Made by a program: the position numbers and the translations under genes. Under the pieces are notes generated by a model. The model saw only the letters and a program-made list of their open reading frames with translations, made no database searches and had not been told where the DNA came from. 53,871 nucleotides of DNA from Eubacterium sp. (GTDB lineage: Bacteria; Bacillota; Clostridia; Peptostreptococcales; Anaerovoracaceae), in NCBI GenBank assembly GCA_017511535.1, contig JAFWJS010000022.1:1-53871 (forward strand), given 5' to 3'. Positions 1,465 through 36,008 of this stretch are shown here, piece after piece (within the stretch, counting starts at the first letter, position 1; each line of letters opens with the position of its first letter).

Positions 1465-1488
1465 TAGGTAATTATACAGAAGAGCATA

Positions 1489-1791
1489 TCAATCGATCCG
1501 TTTAGGGACACCTTTATATGGTTCCTCTTCATCCGGCTTTTTCTTCTTAGCCAGACTGTCGCCTATGAGGCCTTTGCCCAGGACGAGAAACAGGTGTACC
1601 GCCATTACGGCGCCGGTCACTGCCATCGTCTGCACAGGGAAGAAGATGAACGCGGCAGCATACAGCGCGAGGCCAAGCGTCCCGCCCGGTCCGAAAAAGC
1701 AGAGCCCCGCGAAGACCGCATATAAGATCTCCGGTATGACGACATACCAGTAAGCTGACATATTCGCGATGAGTCTGTTTAGTATCTCCAT
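1489..1791 (-). CDS. Small integral membrane protein, unknown function
   Basis: A 100-residue protein that I do not recognise. It has two or three hydrophobic segments (about residues 12-35, 40-52 and 56-75) and a charged cytosolic-type tail with KKKKPDEEEP. The ATG at 1791 is preceded by AGGAGC at good spacing, and it begins 26 bases after the stop of the HAD hydrolase gene on the same strand, so the two probably form one transcript. No catalytic motif is visible. A membrane location is supported by composition; the role is unknown. Confidence 0.65.
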   Translation of the reverse strand: MEILNRLIANMSAYWYVVIPEILYAVFAGLCFFGPGGTLGLALYAAAFIFFPVQTMAVTGAVMAVHLFLVLGKGLIGDSLAKKKKPDEEEPYKGVPKRID

Positions 1792-10601: not shown

Positions 10602-13600
10602 TCACAGTCTTCCGGTGATATAGATATAGTTATCATCGTCGACGCAGCCGAGATCTCCTGTGTGGAGCCAGCCGCCTTCCAAAGCCGCAGACGTGGCTTC
10701 TTCGTCTTTATAGTACCCCTTCATGACATTCTCGCCCTTAAGGCAGATCTCTCCGATGCCCTCGTGGTTTTTGTTCACGACTTTCACCTCAAGGCCAGGC
10801 ACAAGATGACCGCATGATCCGATCCTTATCTTGTCTTTATCTGACGGATCTACTGCCGCGATCGTAGCGCACTCTGTGAGCCAGTAGCTCTGAAGCGCCG
10901 TCATACCGAACATACGGAGTTCTTCCATGGCGTCCTTATCGACTTTGCTCCCGCCTGTCATGATCATGCGCACCTTTCCGCCTACTACGTCTCTCGACGC
11001 CTGCGCGAACGGAGCCACAATATTCAGCCCTATCTTGCTGGTATATTTGTTTGCGTTCATTATTGAATAGATCGCGTTGCTCCCGCGTCTGTCGTCTACG
11101 GTATCCTTGAACATCTGACGGATCATCCTCATGTCCGCAGGCGTCATGACGAGCACGGTCGGATGAGTATCGCGCATCTCTTTGCACATTTCCTCTGCCG
11201 ACGCAGTCTTGACCTTTCTGGACCTGTGGATCGCGCCTGCTCCCGTATATGCTCCGCGCCATGTGCTGACGATCGACGCACCTCTGTAAAGAGGCAGCAG
11301 CAGACCGCATGTTATTTCATATATTATATGTGCAGGCAGTGTGGAATAGACCACGTCATACGGGTCTATCCTGACAGAGGCGGCAGCAGACATGACGCCG
11401 TACGCTATGTTCGCCTGCGTGAGCTCTACTGTCCTCGCCTGCCCTGTTTCGCCTGAAGTATAGACTATCGCGGCGGTATCGTCGCCTGATATCATCTTGT
11501 CTATATACTGTCTGTCACCCTGTGAAACGCTTCTCTTTCCTTCTTCGATAAGGTCGTTCCAGTTAAGGATGCCTTCTTCTGACGCGTCACCGCTTTCCTC
11601 TGTATGGATCTCGTCTGAGCTGTAGTCATACTCTATCAGCACTTCCAGAGGGGTCGTGCCGAGCGCCTTGATCGTGAGGAACTTGTCTCTCAGCGCTGAT
11701 TCGAAGATCGCCACTCTGACTTCTGCTTCGCTCAGCCGTCTCTCCAGCTCTTCAGTGCTCAGGTCATACTCGACCGGCACCACAGTACCGACTCCTGACA
11801 CGATAGCAAGGTATGACATCTGCCACTTATATCCGTTACGCCCTATCACGGCGACGTTGCTTCCTCCGAGGTCACGGTCGATCAAAGCTGTTCCGAGGCC
11901 GTCCATATCAGCAAGAAGCTCCTTATATGTGACTTCCACATACTGCCTGGAATTGTTTACTGTTTCGTTTCCGCCGGCTTCCGGCTCGAGTTTTCTTATG
12001 AACGCCTTGTTCTTTTCAAATCTGTCGCAGCTTAAGTAGATGAGGTTTTTGATATCTGTCACAGGACGGATATCTTTCGCTTCTATGTAGCCGCTCTTAT
12101 CTCTCTTTATCTGGTCCACGAGTTCTCTCGCGCGGCTCTCTTCAAGGCGCTTCTTCTCGTGCTCGTCGAGGCTCCCGCCTGACTGCGGACCGCCGCCGAG
12201 CTTGTTGCCGAAACGCTTGATCTTGCCTGTAGTGGTTTTTATGAACGGCTCTTTACGGATGTTCACACGCTTGACCTGCTTGTATGGCGGGAGTCCTTTG
12301 TTGAACTCGTCGACGAGATCCTTGAACAGATAGTAGATCTCGCTTTCACCGAGGTCGCCCTTCTGGCGCTTCACCTCTTCGAAGTTCGGATAGATGTCGG
12401 CTGTGATCATCACGTTCCCTACTCGGTCGTCTGCAACTCCGTGCACGATGACTTCCTGCACAAGCTCGCTCTCCATGAGGACTGCTTCAACTTCTTCAGG
12501 GAATATGTTCTTTCCGCCCTTGGTGACGATGACAGTCTTGGCTCTTCCCGTGATATGAACGAATCCATCCTCATCCATATAGCCGAGGTCTCCTGTATGG
12601 AGCCAGCCGTTTCTCAGAGTCTCTTTTGTAGCTTCTTCATTCTCGTAATATCCCATCATGACCGACGGGCCCTTTACGATTATCTCGCCTATGCCGTCTT
12701 CATCCTGATCGACGATCCTGACTTTGGTGCCCGGCACCGGCTTCCCTACGGCGTCTGCCTTGCGGTATCTGTCAGGATTCAGGCAGATGATCGGCGCGCA
12801 TTCGCTCATTCCGTATCCCTGGATCATCGGGATGCCCATCGCTTCAAACTCCTCAATTATATATGGATCCGCAGCGGCGCCTCCGACGATGAAGGCCTGC
12901 ATCGCTCCTCCGAATGAATTATGTATCGCCTTGAACAGTCTCTTTATGACCATCTTGTTGTTATACAGCTTGAGGCGCTTGGAAAGATCTATAGCGCGGC
13001 GCAGTTTCTGGTCCTCGCCGCGGCGCTTGGCCTGTTTCCACATGCCCTTGTACATCTTTTCGAATACGAGAGGCACGCCCAGCATTACGTTGGCCTTGAC
13101 CTCTTCCATGTTTTTCTGTATGTATTTGATGCCCTCACAGATGGCGATCGTCTTCCCCTGGTAGAACGTTGTGAATATATCGCACGTCATCTCATATACG
13201 TGATGGATAGGCAGGATCGAAAGCACGATGCCCGGCTCAGGGATCTTGAAGAACATGGAGAGCTGCATGCAGTTGGCAGCTATGTTCCTGTGTGAGAGCA
13301 TGACGCCCTTTGCTGCCCCTGTCGTTCCTGAAGTAAAGAGCAGAGTGGACATCTGATCAGGGTCCACGTCTATGTCTGTATATGAAGCGTCTCCCTGTTC
13401 AAGCAGCTCACGCCCCTTTTCAACGAGCTCCGGAAGCGACAGCTCCTGCTCAGAGGCCGTCTCCTCTTCCATTGAGATGAAATACTGTATGCTCTTCGGA
13501 TCGCCGAAGAGTGCCTCGATATTCTTACGGCATTTATTCGAATACACTATCGCGGCGGCTCCTGACCTTTCGACAAGACCGATAAGCTCTCCCGACGGAA

Positions 13601-29714: not shown

Positions 29715-30146
29715 TTACAGATCAGCCATGTCTTCCTGGCTGAGGACTTTGATGCCGTTTGATACAAGCGCCGCTGACGCCTTCGCGTCGTCGTGCACTT
29801 TGAAAATCATATAGGCGTTGCTGCCTTCTGCTGAAAGGATCGCGTACATATACTCAAGATTGATATTGTTGTCTGTGAAGATCTTCAGGACTTTGTTGAG
29901 GGCTCCCGGCTCGTCAGGGATCTCAGCCGCGACTACAGGAGTCAGCCTGCTGATATATCCTTCCTCGTTCAGGATCGTTACTGTCTCAAGCACATCGTCT
30001 ACGATGAATCTCGCGATGCCGAAATCTGTGGTCTCAGCGAGTGAAAGAGCTCTCAGGTCCACGTTGTGATCCGAAAGCGTCTCGGTCAGCTGATTCAGCT
30101 GGCCCGGTTTATTCTCCAGAAATACGGAGATCTGTTTAACTGACAT
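29715..30146 (-). CDS. Tandem ACT-domain protein
   Basis: A 143-residue protein made of two ACT domains, about residues 3-70 (ISVFLENKPGQLNQLTETLSDHNVDLRAL) and 72-140 (VVAAEIPDEPGALNKVLKIFTDNNINLEYMYA). ACT domains bind amino acids allosterically. Genes of this type are commonly found beside paaK and iorAB. It lies between paaK and the symporter gene, so sensing an aromatic amino acid and adjusting the pathway enzymes is a fair inference. No enzyme domain is attached. Confidence 0.88.
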   Translation of the reverse strand: MSVKQISVFLENKPGQLNQLTETLSDHNVDLRALSLAETTDFGIARFIVDDVLETVTILNEEGYISRLTPVVAAEIPDEPGALNKVLKIFTDNNINLEYMYAILSAEGSNAYMIFKVHDDAKASAALVSNGIKVLSQEDMADL

Positions 30147-30196: not shown

Positions 30197-31498
30197 TTAT
30201 ATTTTACGCTTGTCGATGACACGGACTGCCTTGCCTTCGCTTCTCGCGATCGTCTTAGGCGCTACGAGCGTTACGTTGGCCTTGATGCCGAGCATGGACT
30301 TGAGTCCATCGACGAGCTCATGCTGACGCTCGGAGATCTCGCCCAGGTTGTCTGTGAACATTTCCTGGGTCATTTCGACCTGAACGTCCAGTGTGTCGGT
30401 ATTGTTCACGCGGTCAACGATGATCTGATAGTTGGCCGGATAGCCTTTGTTCAGGAGCACTGTCTCGATCTGCGACGGGAATACGTTGACGCCGCGGATG
30501 ATCAGCATGTCATCTGTACGTCCTCTCGGTCTGGACATCTTCACGAACGTACGGCCGCATGAGCACTGCTTTCTGGAAAGTGAGCATATGTCGCGCGTAC
30601 GGTATCTGAGGAGAGGGAACGCTTCCTTATCGAGTGATGTGAACACGAGCTCTCCCATTTCGCCTTCCGGCAGGACCTCTCCTGTCTCAGGATCGATGAT
30701 CTCTGCTATGAAGTGGTCTTCATTAACGTGCATACCGCTCTGCTCCGAGCATTCGAACGAGACGCCCGGCCCTGACAGCTCTGTCAGTCCGTAAATGTCA
30801 TATGCCTTGATACCCAGTGTGTTCTCGATGTCGTGGCGCATCTCTTCACTCCATGCTTCAGCTCCGAAGATTCCTGCCTTCAGAGGAATGTCCTCCGGCT
30901 TCATTCCCATCTCTTTCATGGATTCGCCGAGATAGGCGGCATAGCTCGGAGTGCAGCAGAGGATAGTCGCTGACAGGTCTTTTATGAACATGATCTGACG
31001 CTCTGTGTTGCCGGAGCTTGTCGGGATAGTAAGGCATCCCACTTTGTGGCTCCCGCCGTTCAGCCCCGGGCCTCCTGTGAAGAGGCCGTAGCCGTACGAT
31101 ACCTGGCATACGTCTTCTTTGGTCCCGCCTGCGGCTACGATAGCTCTCGCGCAGCACTCTTCCCACAGATTGATGTCATGCTGTGTGTAGAACGCTACGA
31201 CGCGCTTCCCCGTAGTTCCTGATGTGGACTGGATACGTACACAGTCCTTCAGAGGCTTGCCGAGCAGACCGTATGGATATGCCTCTCTGAGATCCGCTTT
31301 ACTGAGAAAAGGCAGCTTGTGCAGGTCGTCTATAGACTGGATATCGTCAGGCGTAAGGCCTGCTTCTTCCATTTTCTTCCGGTAATATGGAACGCTGTCC
31401 CATACGTGCCGGACCTGCTTTACGAGCTTTTCGTCCTGGATCTTTTTCAGTGCTTCTCTCGACGCACACTCGATCTTTTTCTGGAAATACTTAATCAT
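30197..31498 (-). CDS. paaK: Phenylacetate/arylacetate-CoA ligase
   Basis: ATP-dependent ligase forming aryl-acetyl-CoA (phenylacetyl-, 4-hydroxyphenylacetyl- or indoleacetyl-CoA). At 433 residues it has the short PaaK form of the ANL superfamily. The P-loop is IQSTSGTTGKRVVAFYT (about 90-106), followed by YDIYGLTELSGPGVSFEC and the hinge segment SRPRGRTDDMLIIRGVNVFPSQIE. The C-terminal domain ends EGKAVRVIDKRKI. It is third in the operon after iorA and iorB, separated by about 96 bases that include a hairpin holding its AGGGAG site in the loop (31504-31521). ADP-forming alternatives are excluded by the fold. Confidence 0.95.
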   Translation of the reverse strand: MIKYFQKKIECASREALKKIQDEKLVKQVRHVWDSVPYYRKKMEEAGLTPDDIQSIDDLHKLPFLSKADLREAYPYGLLGKPLKDCVRIQSTSGTTGKRVVAFYTQHDINLWEECCARAIVAAGGTKEDVCQVSYGYGLFTGGPGLNGGSHKVGCLTIPTSSGNTERQIMFIKDLSATILCCTPSYAAYLGESMKEMGMKPEDIPLKAGIFGAEAWSEEMRHDIENTLGIKAYDIYGLTELSGPGVSFECSEQSGMHVNEDHFIAEIIDPETGEVLPEGEMGELVFTSLDKEAFPLLRYRTRDICSLSRKQCSCGRTFVKMSRPRGRTDDMLIIRGVNVFPSQIETVLLNKGYPANYQIIVDRVNNTDTLDVQVEMTQEMFTDNLGEISERQHELVDGLKSMLGIKANVTLVAPKTIARSEGKAVRVIDKRKI

Positions 31499-31594: not shown

Positions 31595-32170
31595 TTACAT
31601 AGCGTCACGCCCGAGAGCGAACGCTTTTCTGTTGAGCTCAAGGAACTTCTCAGGCACATTGGCCTCAAGAGCCTTCATCCACGCCTCTTCAGGAAGGTCG
31701 AAATAATGTGACAGCCTTCCCATGAGCACGAGGTTCACCGCCTTGACAGATCCTGCTTCCTCAGCAAGCTTCACGCAGTCGAGGGCATCTACTCTGGCGC
31801 CGCTCTCCTTAAGCTTCTCCACGAGGTTTTCCGGATATTCCGCGGCGCCTGTGATGACAGGCATCGGATCTATCTGCTGGATGTTGGTCACGATCCTGCC
31901 GTCTGCCTTAAGGAACGGCAGCCATCTCGCGGCTTCCAGAAGCTCGAACGATACTATGAAATCTGCTTCACCTTTATCTACCACAGGCGAGTAGACTTTA
32001 TCGCCGTATCTTACATAGGTCACTACTGAGCCGCCGCGCTGCGACATGCCGTGTACCTCGGATACTTTTACGTCATACCCTTCGGCAAGAAGGAGCGACC
32101 CCAGCATTTTGCTTGCGAGCAGACTTCCCTGTCCGCCCACGCCGACTATCATAATGTTTCTGGTTTCCAT
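31595..32170 (-). CDS. iorB: Indolepyruvate:ferredoxin oxidoreductase, beta subunit
   Basis: Small subunit of the enzyme that interconverts aryl-2-oxo acids (indolepyruvate, phenylpyruvate, 4-hydroxyphenylpyruvate) plus CoA with aryl-acetyl-CoA, CO2 and reduced ferredoxin. The 191-residue POR-gamma-type domain begins IMIVGVGGQGSLLASKMLG and has SEVHGMSQRGGSVVTYVRYG. ATG 32170 is two bases from the iorA stop codon, so the subunits are translationally coupled. Confidence 0.96.
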   Translation of the reverse strand: METRNIMIVGVGGQGSLLASKMLGSLLLAEGYDVKVSEVHGMSQRGGSVVTYVRYGDKVYSPVVDKGEADFIVSFELLEAARWLPFLKADGRIVTNIQQIDPMPVITGAAEYPENLVEKLKESGARVDALDCVKLAEEAGSVKAVNLVLMGRLSHYFDLPEEAWMKALEANVPEKFLELNRKAFALGRDAM

Positions 32171-32172
32171 GG

Positions 32173-33942
32173 CTACTCCTCCCTTCCTGTTTCAGGTGTC
32201 TCGACCGCCGGTTTCGCGGTGGATTCAAAAGCGCCGGCCTTACAGAGCTGGCTGCAGACTTTACAGCCTACGCAAAGCGTATCGTCTACATGTGCTTTTC
32301 CGTCTTTTATCGAGATCGACGGGCAGCCGATCTTCATACACATCCTGCATCCTACGCATTTATCTGTATTGACTTTAAGAGGCGCGTCGTGCTTTACATA
32401 TTTCAGCAGCGTACATGGACGCCTTGAGATTATGACTGAAGGCTCCGGCGCAGCAAGCTCTTCTTTGATCGCTTTGTCTACAGCTTCAAGGTCGTATGGG
32501 TCCACGACTCTCACGCGGTTTATTCCCATGGATCTGACGAGTGCCTCAAGGTCGATCTTTCCCGCAGGATCGCCTTTGATGTTGTATCCTGTCAGAGGGT
32601 TCTGCTGGTGTCCTGTCATTCCGGTGATCGAATTGTCCAGAACGATGACTGTGGAATTGGACTGGTTGTACGCGATGTTCGCCAGCCCTGTCATGCCGCT
32701 GTGCATGAATGTCGAATCGCCGAGAACTCCTACTGTCTTTCCTTCTGAAGCCCCGCCGGTCGCTGTGTTGAATCCGTGTACCGCTCCGAAAGACGCTCCC
32801 ATGCAGAGTGTCATCTCCATCGCGTTCAGCGGTGCCGTCGCTCCGAGCGTGTAGCATCCTATATCGCCGAGTACGGTGACTTTGTTCTTGGCGAGCTCGT
32901 AGAACAGGCCTCTGTGCGGGCAGCCTGAGCACATTACCGGAGGACGCATCGGGATGGCGTCGTCAAGCGCCTTTCCGGTGTGGGCCTCTCCTCCCAGGGC
33001 TTCCGCCACAAGATTCTGTGAAAACTCGCCGCAGATCGGGAGGACGTCTTTTCCTTCCACTTTCAGGCCCAGTGCTCTGCAGTGGTTCTCGATTATCGGG
33101 TCGAGCTCCTCAACAACGACCAGACGGCCGACTTTCGCGGCAAAATCCTTTATGAGCTTCTCGGGGAGCGGATTGGCCATTCCCAGCTTCAGGACTGACA
33201 CGCTGTCCCCGAATACTTCCTTTACATATTGATATGAGGTGCTGGACGTGATGATGCCCATCTCGGTCCCGCCCATCTCTACGCGGTTGATCTTATCAGT
33301 TTCCGCAAGCTCGATGAGCTTCTTCGTACGCTCCTCTACTATCGGGTGACGCTTCTTCGCCATGCCCGGCATCATCACATATTTCGGGATGTTCTTCTCA
33401 TATTCCTTCTTATGTTCTTCTCTTCCTGTCGGATCAACGATCGACTGGCTGTGTGACACGCGCGTGCACATCTTCAGAAGTACCGGTGTGTCATATTCTT
33501 CTGAGATCTCATACGCGAGCTTGGCAAACTCATATGCTTCCTGTGAGTCTGACGGCTCGAGCATTGGGATCTTGGACGCTATGGCATGATGTCTGCTGTC
33601 CTGTTCATTCTGTGAGGAATGCATTCCTGCATCGTCCGCCACACCGATGACCATTCCGGCATTCACTCCGGTGTATGACATCGTGTAGAGCGGGTCAGCC
33701 GCCACATTCAGGCCTACGTGCTTCATCCCGCAGAACGAGCGCGTTCCGGCAAGGCATGCGCCGAAAGCTGATTCCATCGCCACCTTTTCATTTGGAGCCC
33801 ACTCGCTGTAGACGTCGTCAAATTTCGCGATCTCTTCTGTGATCTCAGTACTCGGCGTCCCCGGGTAGCTTGACGCAAAGCCAAGACCGGCATCGTAGAG
33901 TCCTCTCGCCACCGCCTTGTTGCCTAACATCAGTTGTTTCAT
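32173..33942 (-). CDS. iorA: Indolepyruvate:ferredoxin oxidoreductase, alpha subunit
   Basis: Large, thiamine-diphosphate and iron-sulfur subunit, 589 residues, cytosolic. The N-terminal POR-like domain starts LMLGNKAVARGLYDAGLGFA with SSYPGTPSTEI. The TPP domain includes MCSGCPHRGLFYELAKN, GDIGCYTLGA and GDSTFMHSGMTGLANIAYNQ. Two [4Fe-4S] motifs close the protein: CVGCRMCMKIGCP and CVGCKVCSQLCKAG. It opens the operon iorA-iorB-paaK-ACT-symporter. AAGAGGTGACAG precedes the ATG. Its 5' leader holds a Tyr/Phe leader peptide and attenuator, which bears on whether the enzyme runs oxidatively or reductively here. Confidence 0.97.
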   Translation of the reverse strand: MKQLMLGNKAVARGLYDAGLGFASSYPGTPSTEITEEIAKFDDVYSEWAPNEKVAMESAFGACLAGTRSFCGMKHVGLNVAADPLYTMSYTGVNAGMVIGVADDAGMHSSQNEQDSRHHAIASKIPMLEPSDSQEAYEFAKLAYEISEEYDTPVLLKMCTRVSHSQSIVDPTGREEHKKEYEKNIPKYVMMPGMAKKRHPIVEERTKKLIELAETDKINRVEMGGTEMGIITSSTSYQYVKEVFGDSVSVLKLGMANPLPEKLIKDFAAKVGRLVVVEELDPIIENHCRALGLKVEGKDVLPICGEFSQNLVAEALGGEAHTGKALDDAIPMRPPVMCSGCPHRGLFYELAKNKVTVLGDIGCYTLGATAPLNAMEMTLCMGASFGAVHGFNTATGGASEGKTVGVLGDSTFMHSGMTGLANIAYNQSNSTVIVLDNSITGMTGHQQNPLTGYNIKGDPAGKIDLEALVRSMGINRVRVVDPYDLEAVDKAIKEELAAPEPSVIISRRPCTLLKYVKHDAPLKVNTDKCVGCRMCMKIGCPSISIKDGKAHVDDTLCVGCKVCSQLCKAGAFESTAKPAVETPETGREE

Positions 33943-33989: not shown

Positions 33990-34027
33990 GACAATAAAGA
34001 AAGCCGCACAAGGTATTTGTGCGGCTT
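33990..34027 (-). terminator. Attenuator terminator of the ior operon
   Basis: On the minus strand AAGCCGCACAA and TTGTGCGGCTT form a perfect 11-bp stem with an ATACC loop, followed by TCTTTATT. It ends about 50 bases before the iorA ATG, so it terminates the leader rather than a gene. The 5' arm plus loop (34010-34025) can instead pair with 34062-34077 at 14 of 16 positions, giving a competing antiterminator. Confidence 0.88.
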
Positions 34028-34100
34028 GTCGGTTCTCTATTATTTATCTCATCCGTTACATGCAGCGCAAATACCTTTTACTTTAGTTCTTAAAGTAAAA
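34028..34100 (-). promoter_or_regulatory. Antiterminator and 1:2 hairpin of the ior leader
   Basis: Region 1 (34091-34100, TTTTACTTTA on the minus strand, holding the last Phe and Tyr codons) pairs perfectly with 34076-34085 (region 2 start). Region 2 (34062-34077, AAGGTATTTGCGCTGC) pairs with region 3 (34010-34025). Regions 3 and 4 form the terminator. The three pairings exclude one another in the manner of the enteric trp and phe attenuators. Confidence 0.8.
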
Positions 34101-34145
34101 GTCGAAGTAATATGCGTATGCGTAATCAACGGAATTTCTGATCAT
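34083..34145 (-). CDS. Tyr/Phe-rich leader peptide of the ior operon
   Basis: A 20-codon ORF on the minus strand, ATG at 34145 and TAA at 34083-34085, preceded by AAAGAGGT at about seven-base spacing. The peptide contains YAYAYYFDFYF: five Tyr and three Phe in 20 residues. The last codons (TTT TAC TTT) lie in region 1 of the attenuator and the stop codon is in the loop of the 1:2 hairpin. Ribosome stalling at uncharged Tyr- or Phe-tRNA codons would free region 2 and allow antitermination. There are no Trp codons. Confidence 0.85.
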   Translation of the reverse strand: MIRNSVDYAYAYYFDFYFKN

Positions 34146-34170
34146 TAACTTTACCTCTTTATTCTAGTAA

Positions 34171-34200
34171 AGTTTAGCATCAAACTCTTAACGCTGTCAA
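34171..34200 (-). promoter_or_regulatory. Promoter of the ior operon
   Basis: A perfect TTGACA (minus strand, 34195-34200) and TAAACT (34171-34176) with an upstream TG (extended -10), 18-base spacer. The transcript would start near 34163, giving a leader of about 220 nt that includes the leader peptide and attenuator. Confidence 0.75.
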
Positions 34201-34373: not shown

Positions 34374-36008
34374 ATGCCTATTACAGACCTTTTGGAAAGG
34401 AACAGTAAATTATATGGACACGAAGTGGCGCTGGTCGAAATCGACCCGGCGGTAACGGAGCGTCAGAGGGTCACATGGAAAGAGTATGAGCTCGTGCAGC
34501 CGACTCGTACTGAGTTCTACCGCCGTGAGATCACCTGGTCGGTATTCGACGAGAAAGCGAACCGTGTTGCAAACCTTCTTCTTTCACTCGGTATACAGAG
34601 AGGCCAGAAGTGCGCGATCCTTCTGATGAACTGCCTGGAATGGCTGCCTATATATTTCGGCATCCTGAAGGCCGGAGCTATCGCGGTACCTCTGAACTTC
34701 CGCTACACTTCAGACGAGATAGAGTACTGCGTCAAGAAAGCTGACGCGGACATCCTCTTCTACGGTCCTGAATTCATCGGCCGCGTGGAGGATATAATCG
34801 ATCATCTTGATAAAGATCATCATCTGTTCTTCGTCGGCGATTCATGCCCGAGCTATGCGGATGACTATTACAGACAGGTATCCAACTGCTCAAGCATAGC
34901 GCCGAAGATCCTGATAGAAGATAAAGACAAGGCCGCGATATATTTCTCGTCCGGCACGACCGGAATGCCTAAGGCGATCCTGCATAATCACCTGGCGCTG
35001 ATGCAGTCCGCACAGATGGAAGCGATGCATCACGCGACTACCAAGAACGACGTGTTCCTCTGCATCCCGCCTTTGTATCACACAGGCGCGAAGATGCACT
35101 GGTTCGGCTCTCTGTACACGGGAAGCCGCGCGGTTCTTCTTAAGGGCAATTCTCCGTCGGCTATCATGAACGCAGTCTCCAACGAAGGCTGCACCATCGT
35201 CTGGCTGCTCGTACCATGGGCGCAGGACCTTCTGATCGCGCTGGACAGCGGCGAGATCAAGCTCGAGGATTACCGTACTTCACAGTGGCGCCTCATGCAT
35301 ATCGGAGCACAGCCGGTTCCGCCTAGCCTTATCCGCCACTGGTTCCAGTACTTCCCGAACCACCAGTACGATACCAACTACGGTCTGTCCGAGTCGACAG
35401 GTCCGGGATGCGTACATCTTGGCATGGAGAACGTGAACAAAGTCGGAGCGATCGGTATCCCCGGATATGGCTGGGAGACCAAGATCGTGGATGAGAACGG
35501 CAAGAAAGTCAAGCAGGGAGAGGTCGGCGAGCTCTGTGTCAAAGGCCCCGGCGTCATGCTTGAATACTACAAGGATCCTGAAGCCACGAAGGAAGTCCTC
35601 AAAAAGGGCTGGCTCTTCACCGGCGACATGGCACAGCAGGATGAAGACGGCTTCATCTTCCTGGTAGACCGTAAGAAGGACGTCATCATAAGCGGCGGCG
35701 AGAACCTGTATCCTGTACAGATCGAGGCGTTCATCAGCGCCATGCCTAAAGTACATGACGTTGCGGTCATCGGACTTCCTGACAAGCGTCTCGGCGAGAT
35801 CGCTACCGCGATCATCCAGATAAAGGACGGTATGGAATGCACTGAAGATGAGATCAATCAGTTCTGCCTGGACCTGCCAAGATACAAGAGACCTCGCAAG
35901 ATCATCTTCGCGGACGTTCCGCGTAACGCGACAGGAAAGATCGAGAAGCCGAAGCTCCGTGAGCGCTATGGCTCAAGCCGTATCGTAGAGATGGAGAACA
36001 AAGGCTGA
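34374..36008 (+). CDS. AMP-forming acyl-CoA ligase
   Basis: ANL-superfamily ligase of 544 residues, one domain pair. The P-loop is IYFSSGTTGMPKAILHNH, followed by YGLSESTGPGCVHLG, GWLFTGDMAQQDEDGFIFLVDRKKDVIISGGENLYPVQIE, and the catalytic lysine in NATGKIEKPKL near the C-terminus. All motifs appear intact. An unusual aromatic-rich stretch (about residues 30-50) precedes the first core motif. AAAGGAGG lies nine bases before ATG 34374; an in-frame TTG at 34368 is closer to the site. It is divergent from the ior operon, so an aryl or branched carboxylate is a reasonable substrate guess, not proven. Confidence 0.9.
   Translation: MPITDLLERNSKLYGHEVALVEIDPAVTERQRVTWKEYELVQPTRTEFYRREITWSVFDEKANRVANLLLSLGIQRGQKCAILLMNCLEWLPIYFGILKAGAIAVPLNFRYTSDEIEYCVKKADADILFYGPEFIGRVEDIIDHLDKDHHLFFVGDSCPSYADDYYRQVSNCSSIAPKILIEDKDKAAIYFSSGTTGMPKAILHNHLALMQSAQMEAMHHATTKNDVFLCIPPLYHTGAKMHWFGSLYTGSRAVLLKGNSPSAIMNAVSNEGCTIVWLLVPWAQDLLIALDSGEIKLEDYRTSQWRLMHIGAQPVPPSLIRHWFQYFPNHQYDTNYGLSESTGPGCVHLGMENVNKVGAIGIPGYGWETKIVDENGKKVKQGEVGELCVKGPGVMLEYYKDPEATKEVLKKGWLFTGDMAQQDEDGFIFLVDRKKDVIISGGENLYPVQIEAFISAMPKVHDVAVIGLPDKRLGEIATAIIQIKDGMECTEDEINQFCLDLPRYKRPRKIIFADVPRNATGKIEKPKLRERYGSSRIVEMENKG

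What the first reader, a model, noticed from the sequence alone, without database searches (positions are those of the whole stretch)
33990..34200. Tyr/Phe leader-peptide attenuator controls iorA-iorB-paaK
Seen directly: promoter TTGACA-18-TAAACT, an SD-preceded 20-codon ORF with five Tyr and three Phe codons (YAYAYYFDFYF), a 10-bp hairpin over its last codons (1:2), a 14-of-16 alternative pairing (2:3), and a perfect 11-bp terminator with a T-rich tail (3:4), all in the correct order. This is the trp/phe attenuator design, here before an indolepyruvate oxidoreductase operon. I know of no described attenuator of this type for iorAB; I cannot search.
Basis: partly seen in the sequence, partly recalled or inferred. 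Interest (0 to 1): 0.93.

Follow-up and report, generated by a model that had tools for sequence, protein, structure and literature searches.

The report
Tyr/Phe attenuator on arylacetate-salvage operon
A short tyrosine- and phenylalanine-rich reading frame with three mutually exclusive RNA hairpins sits in front of an indolepyruvate-oxidoreductase/phenylacetate-CoA-ligase operon, and it is predicted to switch the operon on when the cell runs short of these amino acids, which suggests that this bacterium, whose shikimate operon lacks the phenylalanine-making step, likely rebuilds them from aromatic acids in its surroundings.

Summary
It is not chance. A covariance model (R2) built only from other genomes has this element as its single match in the genome (E 3.9e-5) and the ortholog as its single match in the nearest relative. 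The model describes an aromatic amino-acid attenuator family, without a match in Rfam 15 where scanned, with compensatory changes in all three helices. Its usual place is before the aroF (shikimate) operon. In one related genus it heads a symporter-paaK-ACT operon, and a Trp-codon version heads a TrpB-like gene. The window's genome and its nearest relative lack prephenate dehydratase (14 of the 17 genus members have it), and there the attenuator is on ior-paaK. Best reading: classical ribosome-mediated attenuation, on at Tyr/Phe shortage, with PaaK and IorAB running from arylacetates to arylpyruvates to Phe/Tyr. Sequence, conservation and folding are shown; starvation response and flux direction are inferred. 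Before iorA itself the device is rare (2 of 136 loci). New variant of a known kind.

The parts
34171..34200 (-). sigma-70-type promoter-like site TTGACA-18-TAAACT
   Evidence: G009 has TTGACA-17-TAGTAT at the same place (read by eye). Consensus match only.
34154..34158 (-). Shine-Dalgarno AGAGG of the leader ORF
   Evidence: read
34083..34145 (-). leader ORF MIRNSVDYAYAYYFDFYFKN and stop; Tyr/Phe codons lie between codons 8 and 18
   Evidence: related leaders
34091..34101 (-). segment 1 (pairs with segment 2); overlaps codons Phe16-Tyr17-Phe18
   Evidence: helix covaries in the family
34075..34085 (-). segment 2, part that pairs with segment 1; contains the stop codon
34058..34077 (-). segment 2, part that pairs with segment 3 (antiterminator)
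   Evidence: helix covaries in the family
34010..34029 (-). segment 3, antiterminator side
33992..34027 (-). intrinsic terminator 3:4 (AAGCCGCACAA-ATACC-TTGTGCGGCTT) and T-rich tail
   Evidence: model R2 matches 33992-34118
32173..33942 (-). iorA, indolepyruvate:ferredoxin oxidoreductase alpha
   Evidence: TIGR03336 708.1 bits, cut-off 650.9
31595..32170 (-). iorB, beta subunit
   Evidence: NF005325 279.4 bits, cut-off 230
30197..31498 (-). paaK-type AMP-forming arylacetate-CoA ligase
   Evidence: TIGR02155 513.1 bits, below its cut-off of 646.3
29715..30146 (-). double ACT-domain protein, possibly an aromatic amino-acid sensor (function inferred)
   Evidence: PF19571 ACT_8 80.7 bits
28146..29696 (-). 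sodium:solute symporter, likely arylacetate uptake (inferred from operon company)
   Evidence: TIGR00813 171.7 bits, below its cut-off of 184; a homolog precedes paaK in the related genus g65

Best explanation
A Tyr/Phe-codon leader peptide and three mutually exclusive RNA helices lie upstream of iorA-iorB-paaK-ACT-symporter and are predicted to work as a ribosome-mediated transcription attenuator that would turn the operon on when charged tRNA-Tyr or tRNA-Phe is scarce, likely so that PaaK and IorAB can make Phe and Tyr from arylacetates. Inferred steps: (1) with enough Tyr/Phe the ribosome reaches the stop codon inside segment 2 and leaves, 1:2 and then 3:4 form, and RNA polymerase stops about 50 nt before iorA; (2) at shortage the ribosome stalls on codons 12-18, covers segment 1, 2:3 forms first and 3:4 cannot; (3) the symporter takes up phenylacetate or 4-hydroxyphenylacetate, PaaK makes the CoA ester, IorAB carboxylates it reductively to the arylpyruvate, and a transaminase finishes. 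Shown: the sequence, the related family with covariation, the two predicted folds when segment 1 is free or masked, and that no prephenate dehydratase was found in the genome. Not shown: transcription, termination, response, flux.
For: Anatomy. Fold switch: with segment 1 free the minimum-energy fold is 1:2 plus 3:4; with segment 1 masked it is 2:3 without the terminator, in the window and in G009. Family: model R2, made of 28 rows none of which is from this genome or G009, has this element as its only match in G000 (E 3.9e-5) and the ortholog as the only match in G009 (8.8e-4). Covariation in 27 distinct rows: 1:2 and 3:4, 94.0% of cells paired, 14 of 19 pairs changed on both sides, score 0.409 against 0.167 shuffled, 0 of 500; 2:3, 82.2% paired, 10 of 18 pairs, 0.259 against 0.172, 0 of 500. 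Those rows are fitted to 1:2 and 3:4, not to 2:3. Codons: among 8 related leaders the aromatic block (codons 11-18) differs pairwise by 38 synonymous to 7 other codon changes, codons 2-10 by 26 to 91. Codons follow the product: 6 of 6 leaders before the TrpB-like gene have two or more Trp codons, 0 of 15 before paaK/ior operons, 1 of 18 before aroF (leaders chosen by me, with L131 and L160 left out). Biosynthetic need: no prephenate dehydratase in G000 and G009, aro operon without that domain in both, no PF01817 chorismate mutase in G000, chorismate synthase present in both.
Against: Only 2 of 136 iorA loci carry it. No expression data. In the unfitted 10-row alignment the 1:2/3:4 structure slid by one column has a higher covariation score (0.179 against 0.147), and pairs with both-side changes in 2:3 are reached by 79 of 500 shuffles. 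Folding shows a clean switch only in window and G009 of 7 leaders tried. paaK presence and prephenate dehydratase are not associated across 349 genomes (82 of 124 with paaK and 143 of 225 without have the dehydratase, p = 0.64), and the association for attenuator carriers (12 of 15 lack it against 112 of 334) rests largely on one genus. Three carriers (G018, G200, G220) have both. G000 is 88% complete. G000 and G009 keep a TyrA-type gene and G009 a chorismate mutase, so a Tyr need is less clear there. IorAB direction cannot be read from sequence.
Confidence: 0.85

Rival explanations
1. The attenuator is real but the operon is catabolic: IorAB oxidises arylpyruvates from Phe/Tyr to arylacetyl-CoA, as in amino-acid fermenting anaerobes.
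For: IORs of fermenting organisms run oxidatively, and an IOR is reported to take part in making phenylacetate from Phe in Bacteroides (PMC13285125, passages read).
Against: A starvation-induced attenuator would switch a degradation pathway on when its substrate is missing. The ligase belongs to the PaaK family, AMP-forming (recalled); the same paper argues that AMP-forming ligases favour acyl-CoA synthesis, so that the Bacteroides IOR may be biosynthetic. No prephenate dehydratase in the genome. The same RNA family heads the aroF operon and a TrpB-like gene.
Confidence: 0.08
2. The leader peptide acts as a nascent-peptide sensor (TnaC-like), responding to free amino acid or another ligand rather than to tRNA charging.
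For: Leader tails in one genus share SRVNLRC-like ends, so part of the peptide is conserved beyond aromatic codons.
Against: That stretch overlaps segment 2, where RNA pairing can explain its conservation; the window's leader lacks it. Aromatic identity follows the product of the downstream gene, as codon sensing predicts.
Confidence: 0.05
3. A constitutive terminator next to a chance aromatic ORF; no regulation.
For: Nine of 26 scanner rows in real DNA look accidental.
Against: Conservation in G009, recovery by a model built without it, and covariation of three overlapping helices.
Confidence: 0.02

Closest known systems
Classical ribosome-mediated attenuators of enterobacterial trp and pheA operons (recalled)
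   Same: Leader ORF with regulatory codons, 1:2, 2:3, 3:4 order, U-rich terminator.
   Different: Here in a Bacillota lineage (probably Clostridia) and before an arylacetate (ior-paaK) operon; no match to an Rfam 15 family at the element.
uORFC-13-1 motif (PMC8632094, passages and section 26 read)
   Same: Predicted uORF with at least one Phe codon and a terminator, before aroF.
   Different: Described only from Acholeplasma and environmental DNA, 24 sequences, only before aroF. The section mentions one further base-paired substructure but no 2:3 switch. Homology to the present family was not tested.
Histidine leader peptide before hisS/hisZ in bacilli (PMC2965389, passages read)
   Same: Leader-peptide attenuation in Firmicutes; the authors then knew no amino-acid leader peptide outside Proteobacteria and Actinobacteria.
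   Different: Other amino acid, other genes; relation not tested.
T-box
   Same: Reads amino-acid supply through tRNA before amino-acid genes in Firmicutes.
   Different: No T-box at the element. One relative, G018, has a T-box before the divergent symporter gene beside paaK.

Membership tests
Ribosome-mediated (leader-peptide) transcription attenuator | Short ORF with ribosome-binding site just downstream of the promoter | tested here: met
   the promoter is a consensus match only
Ribosome-mediated (leader-peptide) transcription attenuator | Run of codons for the amino acid(s) made by the operon, conserved | tested here: met
   5 Tyr and 3 Phe. That the operon makes Phe/Tyr is inferred.
Ribosome-mediated (leader-peptide) transcription attenuator | Mutually exclusive 1:2, 2:3, 3:4 helices with compensatory change | tested here: met
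   (covariation in the family, not between window and G009 alone)
Ribosome-mediated (leader-peptide) transcription attenuator | Intrinsic terminator before the first gene | tested here: met
Ribosome-mediated (leader-peptide) transcription attenuator | Terminated leader RNA and derepression on starvation for the amino acid | not testable with these tools
   needs RNA data
Aromatic attenuator family defined here (models R1, R2) | Match to the covariance model in the right place and strand | tested here: met
   R2, E 3.9e-5 in G000, single match; R1 alone was inconclusive, E 0.07, no match
Rfam 15 families, T-box included | Match to the Rfam model | tested here: not met
   nothing at the element up to E = 1
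uORFC-13-1 | Located before aroF | tested here: not met
   the window's element precedes iorA
uORFC-13-1 | Match to the published consensus | not tested
   alignment not at hand; only the section text was read

The most novel reading that the evidence does not exclude
A single Bacillota attenuator scaffold, with its codons retuned, marks which aromatic pathway a species depends on: before the aroF operon where Phe is made de novo, before symporter-paaK or ior-paaK operons where the prephenate-dehydratase step is missing and Phe/Tyr come from arylacetates, before a TrpB-like gene with Trp codons (indole to Trp), and possibly before a tyrosine phenol-lyase-type gene with six Tyr codons (phenol to Tyr). 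Regulation has been handed from the de novo to the salvage operon, and it settles the direction of IorAB-PaaK.
Probability: 0.55. Interest if true: 0.88.

Novelty: new variant of a known kind. Interest (0 to 1): 0.78.

Why it matters
Whether IOR plus an AMP-forming arylacetate ligase degrades or builds aromatic amino acids in gut anaerobes is open (PMC13285125 raises it for Bacteroides; passages). A Tyr/Phe attenuator on such operons says 'build', and makes that testable with one reporter and one tracer. It also adds a leader-peptide attenuator family in Bacillota, where T-boxes are the expected device, and shows codon content tracking pathway product on one RNA scaffold. Rumen Phe synthesis from phenylacetate has long been reported (Allison 1965, cited in PMC7356843, passages read); this offers genes and a control for it.

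Tried and rejected
Scanning 450-500 bases upstream of iorA in 136 loci gave nothing beyond the two known. Three weak combinations, L033, L088 and L100, were judged accidental and not followed; L085, L106 and L108 had under 210 bases upstream; L038 and L136 are one locus; in many loci iorA is not the first gene. The first orientation of loci was wrong and was redone. MAFFT alignment A1 (13 leaders) misplaces segment 1 of the window and G009, so it was not used for pair counts. T-box as the regulator: rejected, no match. paaK-versus-dehydratase association: tested and absent. Before paaK, L150 and L167 scored above 26 but were judged accidental. Leaders L131 and L160 (two in tandem) before paaK are attenuator-like but not matched by R2; their ungapped 2:3 pairing is short (5-6 pairs), so they are left outside the family. 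In one search the script misplaced the leader in loci cut by contig ends (for example L252, L256, L260), so leaders there were not read. Literature searches that found no report of an attenuator for ior or paaK: (open-licence PMC papers only; searches had no hits; for only the top part of the listing was seen).

Full report
What is there. On the minus strand, 34200 to 33992, lie a promoter-like pair of hexamers, a Shine-Dalgarno, a 20-codon ORF (MIRNSVDYAYAYYFDFYFKN), an 11-bp hairpin over its last codons, a 17-of-20 alternative helix and an 11-bp terminator with a T-rich tail. iorA starts about 50 nt further on, followed by iorB, paaK, a double-ACT protein and a sodium:solute symporter on the same strand. 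A divergent acyl-CoA ligase gene lies on the other side (34374-36008).

Is it more than chance. The RNA folds far better than its shuffles (z -5.6, 0 of 200). A scanner for leader ORF plus terminator, run over the window and 228 of the 229 loci then held (L001, the window's own stretch, left out; about 1.6 Mb with overlaps), gave 26 rows at score 31 or more: the window, G009 (twice, as L002 and L137), nine before a symporter-paaK-ACT operon, five before paaK (L123, L131, L163, L160 twice) and nine accidental-looking ones; a block shuffle gave none.

Relatives. The nearest relative, G009 (IorA 88% identical), has the same operon and the same element, with the aromatic block and segments 2 and 3 conserved while the spacer between them diverges. 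Among 136 iorA loci (30, the window included; 26; 80) only these two have it. Scanning before paaK in 178 loci and whole loci found the other leaders named above. In genus g65 of the same family they read, for example, MAKTMNIANAYYYFYFGFTGGQ before symporter-paaK-ACT (for the gene order).

A family. From 10 of these leaders I built model R1. In 349 genomes of the family it matched 35 at E 0.05 or less, G000 and G009 not among them. I fetched stretches around 18 matches, plus the aro operons of G000 and G009. Besides symporter-paaK two further targets appeared: the aroF operon (seen in L279 and L285: DAHP synthase, in L285 a TyrA-type gene, then aroB, aroA, aroC, a chorismate mutase-prephenate dehydratase gene, aroE, aroQ; DAHP synthase of both and the mutase-dehydratase of L279 by NCBIfam, TyrA, aroC and dehydratase of L285 by Pfam position, the rest by eye) and a TrpB-like gene whose leader carries YWWW or YWW. 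The TrpB-like gene itself was seen in L274 and L278 and by tblastn in L245 and L247; NCBIfam was run on L274 only. Of 46 loci from the model searches (some sites twice), the best tblastn match to the query proteins is DAHP synthase in 30, the symporter in 11, paaK in 1, iorA in 1 (the window), and none in 3.

Structure evidence. Realigned with R1, 28 rows (27 distinct; window and G009 not among them) show 94.0% pairing with both-side changes in 14 of 19 pairs for 1:2 plus 3:4, and 82.2% with both-side changes in 10 of 18 pairs for 2:3, each above all 500 shuffles on the covariation score. That alignment leans to 1:2 and 3:4, not to 2:3. In 2:3 some positions pair poorly (65-129: 19 of 27 unpaired; 67-127: 11 of 26; 66-128: 8 of 26). 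The unfitted 10-row alignment gives 94.7% for 2:3 with two pairs changed on both sides (79 of 500 shuffles reach that; score reached by 1 of 500) and 93.7% for 1:2 plus 3:4 with three (20 of 500; score 0 of 500), but there the structure slid by one column scores higher (0.179 against 0.147); the terminator arms of L163 and L123 are out of register in it. Segment 3 thus has to serve two partners, and in the larger set does.

Blind test. R2, built from those 28 rows, was run on 374 genomes drawn from the order: 43 matched at E 0.01 or less, G000 once, at 33992-34118 of the window, E 3.9e-5, and G009 once, at its ortholog, E 8.8e-4. E-values are per genome, from a short calibration. In 109 genomes across the phylum R2 matched G000 and two others, both with Tyr/Phe leaders before DAHP synthase. 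Rfam 15 has nothing at the window's element up to E = 1 and nothing at gathering score at the elements of the 12 other loci scanned.

Switch. With segment 1 free, the minimum-energy fold of window and G009 is 1:2 with 3:4; with segment 1 masked it is 2:3. Of the other five leaders tried, in L200 the antiterminator wins in both cases; in L210, L163 and L123 it wins only before segment 4 is made; in L215 no stable 1:2 was found, the antiterminator-type fold wins with segment 1 free and the terminator with it masked. So equilibrium folding supports the switch in the window and G009 and leaves it to kinetics, or does not support it, elsewhere.

Why this operon. In genus g1 prephenate dehydratase (PF00800) is found in 14 of 17 genomes and not in G000, G009 and G010; G010 also has no chorismate synthase match and may be incomplete. 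In G009 the place of the bifunctional gene, between aroC and aroE, holds a lone chorismate mutase domain (PF01817, 70.4 bits). In G000 about 80 bases remain there, similar to the end of G009's mutase, and no PF01817 match is found in the genome (other mutase families were not searched). Of the 14 congeners with the dehydratase, five have an R2 match at the aro operon (G013, G006 and G003 with DAHP synthase next; G002 and G007 by position), G012 has a match elsewhere, seven are listed without one and G008 is not listed. G009's own aroF operon has no match; G000's is cut by a contig end. Carriers of an arylacetate-operon attenuator (G018 with its tandem pair counted) lack the dehydratase in 12 of 15 genomes, other genomes in 112 of 334 (p 0.0004), but this is not corrected for kinship; paaK alone shows no such link, nor does IorA at E 1e-200 (19 of 37 have the dehydratase against 206 of 312, p 0.10). 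IorA-like genes at E 1e-60 or less are present in 12 of 13 carriers tested, not in G205.

Reading. The simplest account is a classical attenuator on a biosynthetic arylacetate route. Regulation of degradation by starvation would make little sense. How the element came to ior-paaK (moved from the aro operon, or gained otherwise) is not known.

Known work. PMC2965389 (passages), PMC1262725 (passages), PMC8632094 (passages and section 26), PMC13285125 (passages), PMC7356843 (passages), PMC5897657, PMC5171806 and PMC3937554 (passages). None of the passages seen describes this device; searches are named under Tried and rejected, and subscription papers on aromatic regulation in Gram-positives were not available. 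The layout of the enterobacterial trp and phe attenuators is recalled.

Noticed in passing
L274 8207-8344 (-) and L273, L275-L278: Trp-codon leaders (for example MVIIKSMTNGYWWWRSFTTDKL) on the same RNA scaffold, on the opposite strand near the symporter-paaK operon; TrpB-like gene downstream seen in L274 and L278.
   Followed up: partly
L307 about 1471-1655 (+): Leader MMRTNSFAAEYYYYYYHRAEGCCFAV before a tryptophanase/tyrosine phenol-lyase-family gene (1655-2974): possible phenol-to-Tyr salvage.
   Followed up: partly
L272 (leader upstream of the - strand genes 2807-1710 and 1438-443): R1 match with leader MLNRINHRANYYYYYGFNN near a TrpX-type ABC substrate-binding protein (443-1438, 284 bits, below cut-off).
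   Followed up: partly
L160 1034-1391 (+) and 643-895 (-): Two Phe-rich leader-plus-terminator units in tandem before paaK, and a T-box on the other strand before the divergent symporter gene (G018). Specifier codon not assigned.
   Followed up: partly
L131 6804-6893 (+): Phe-rich leader MNKLSNQVFSFTSGYFFSRFFAVPKTDCP with a 15-bp terminator before paaK, not matched by the family model: perhaps an independent attenuator.
   Followed up: partly
L292 about 11900-11930 (-): In G009 a short hairpin with a T run (CCCTGCAGC-AGAT-GCTGCGGGG) precedes aroF without an aromatic leader ORF found by the scan; may be a decayed attenuator.
   Followed up: no
L215 5736-5859 (+): Azaaromatic (yjdF) riboswitch match, 73.9 bits.
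   Followed up: no
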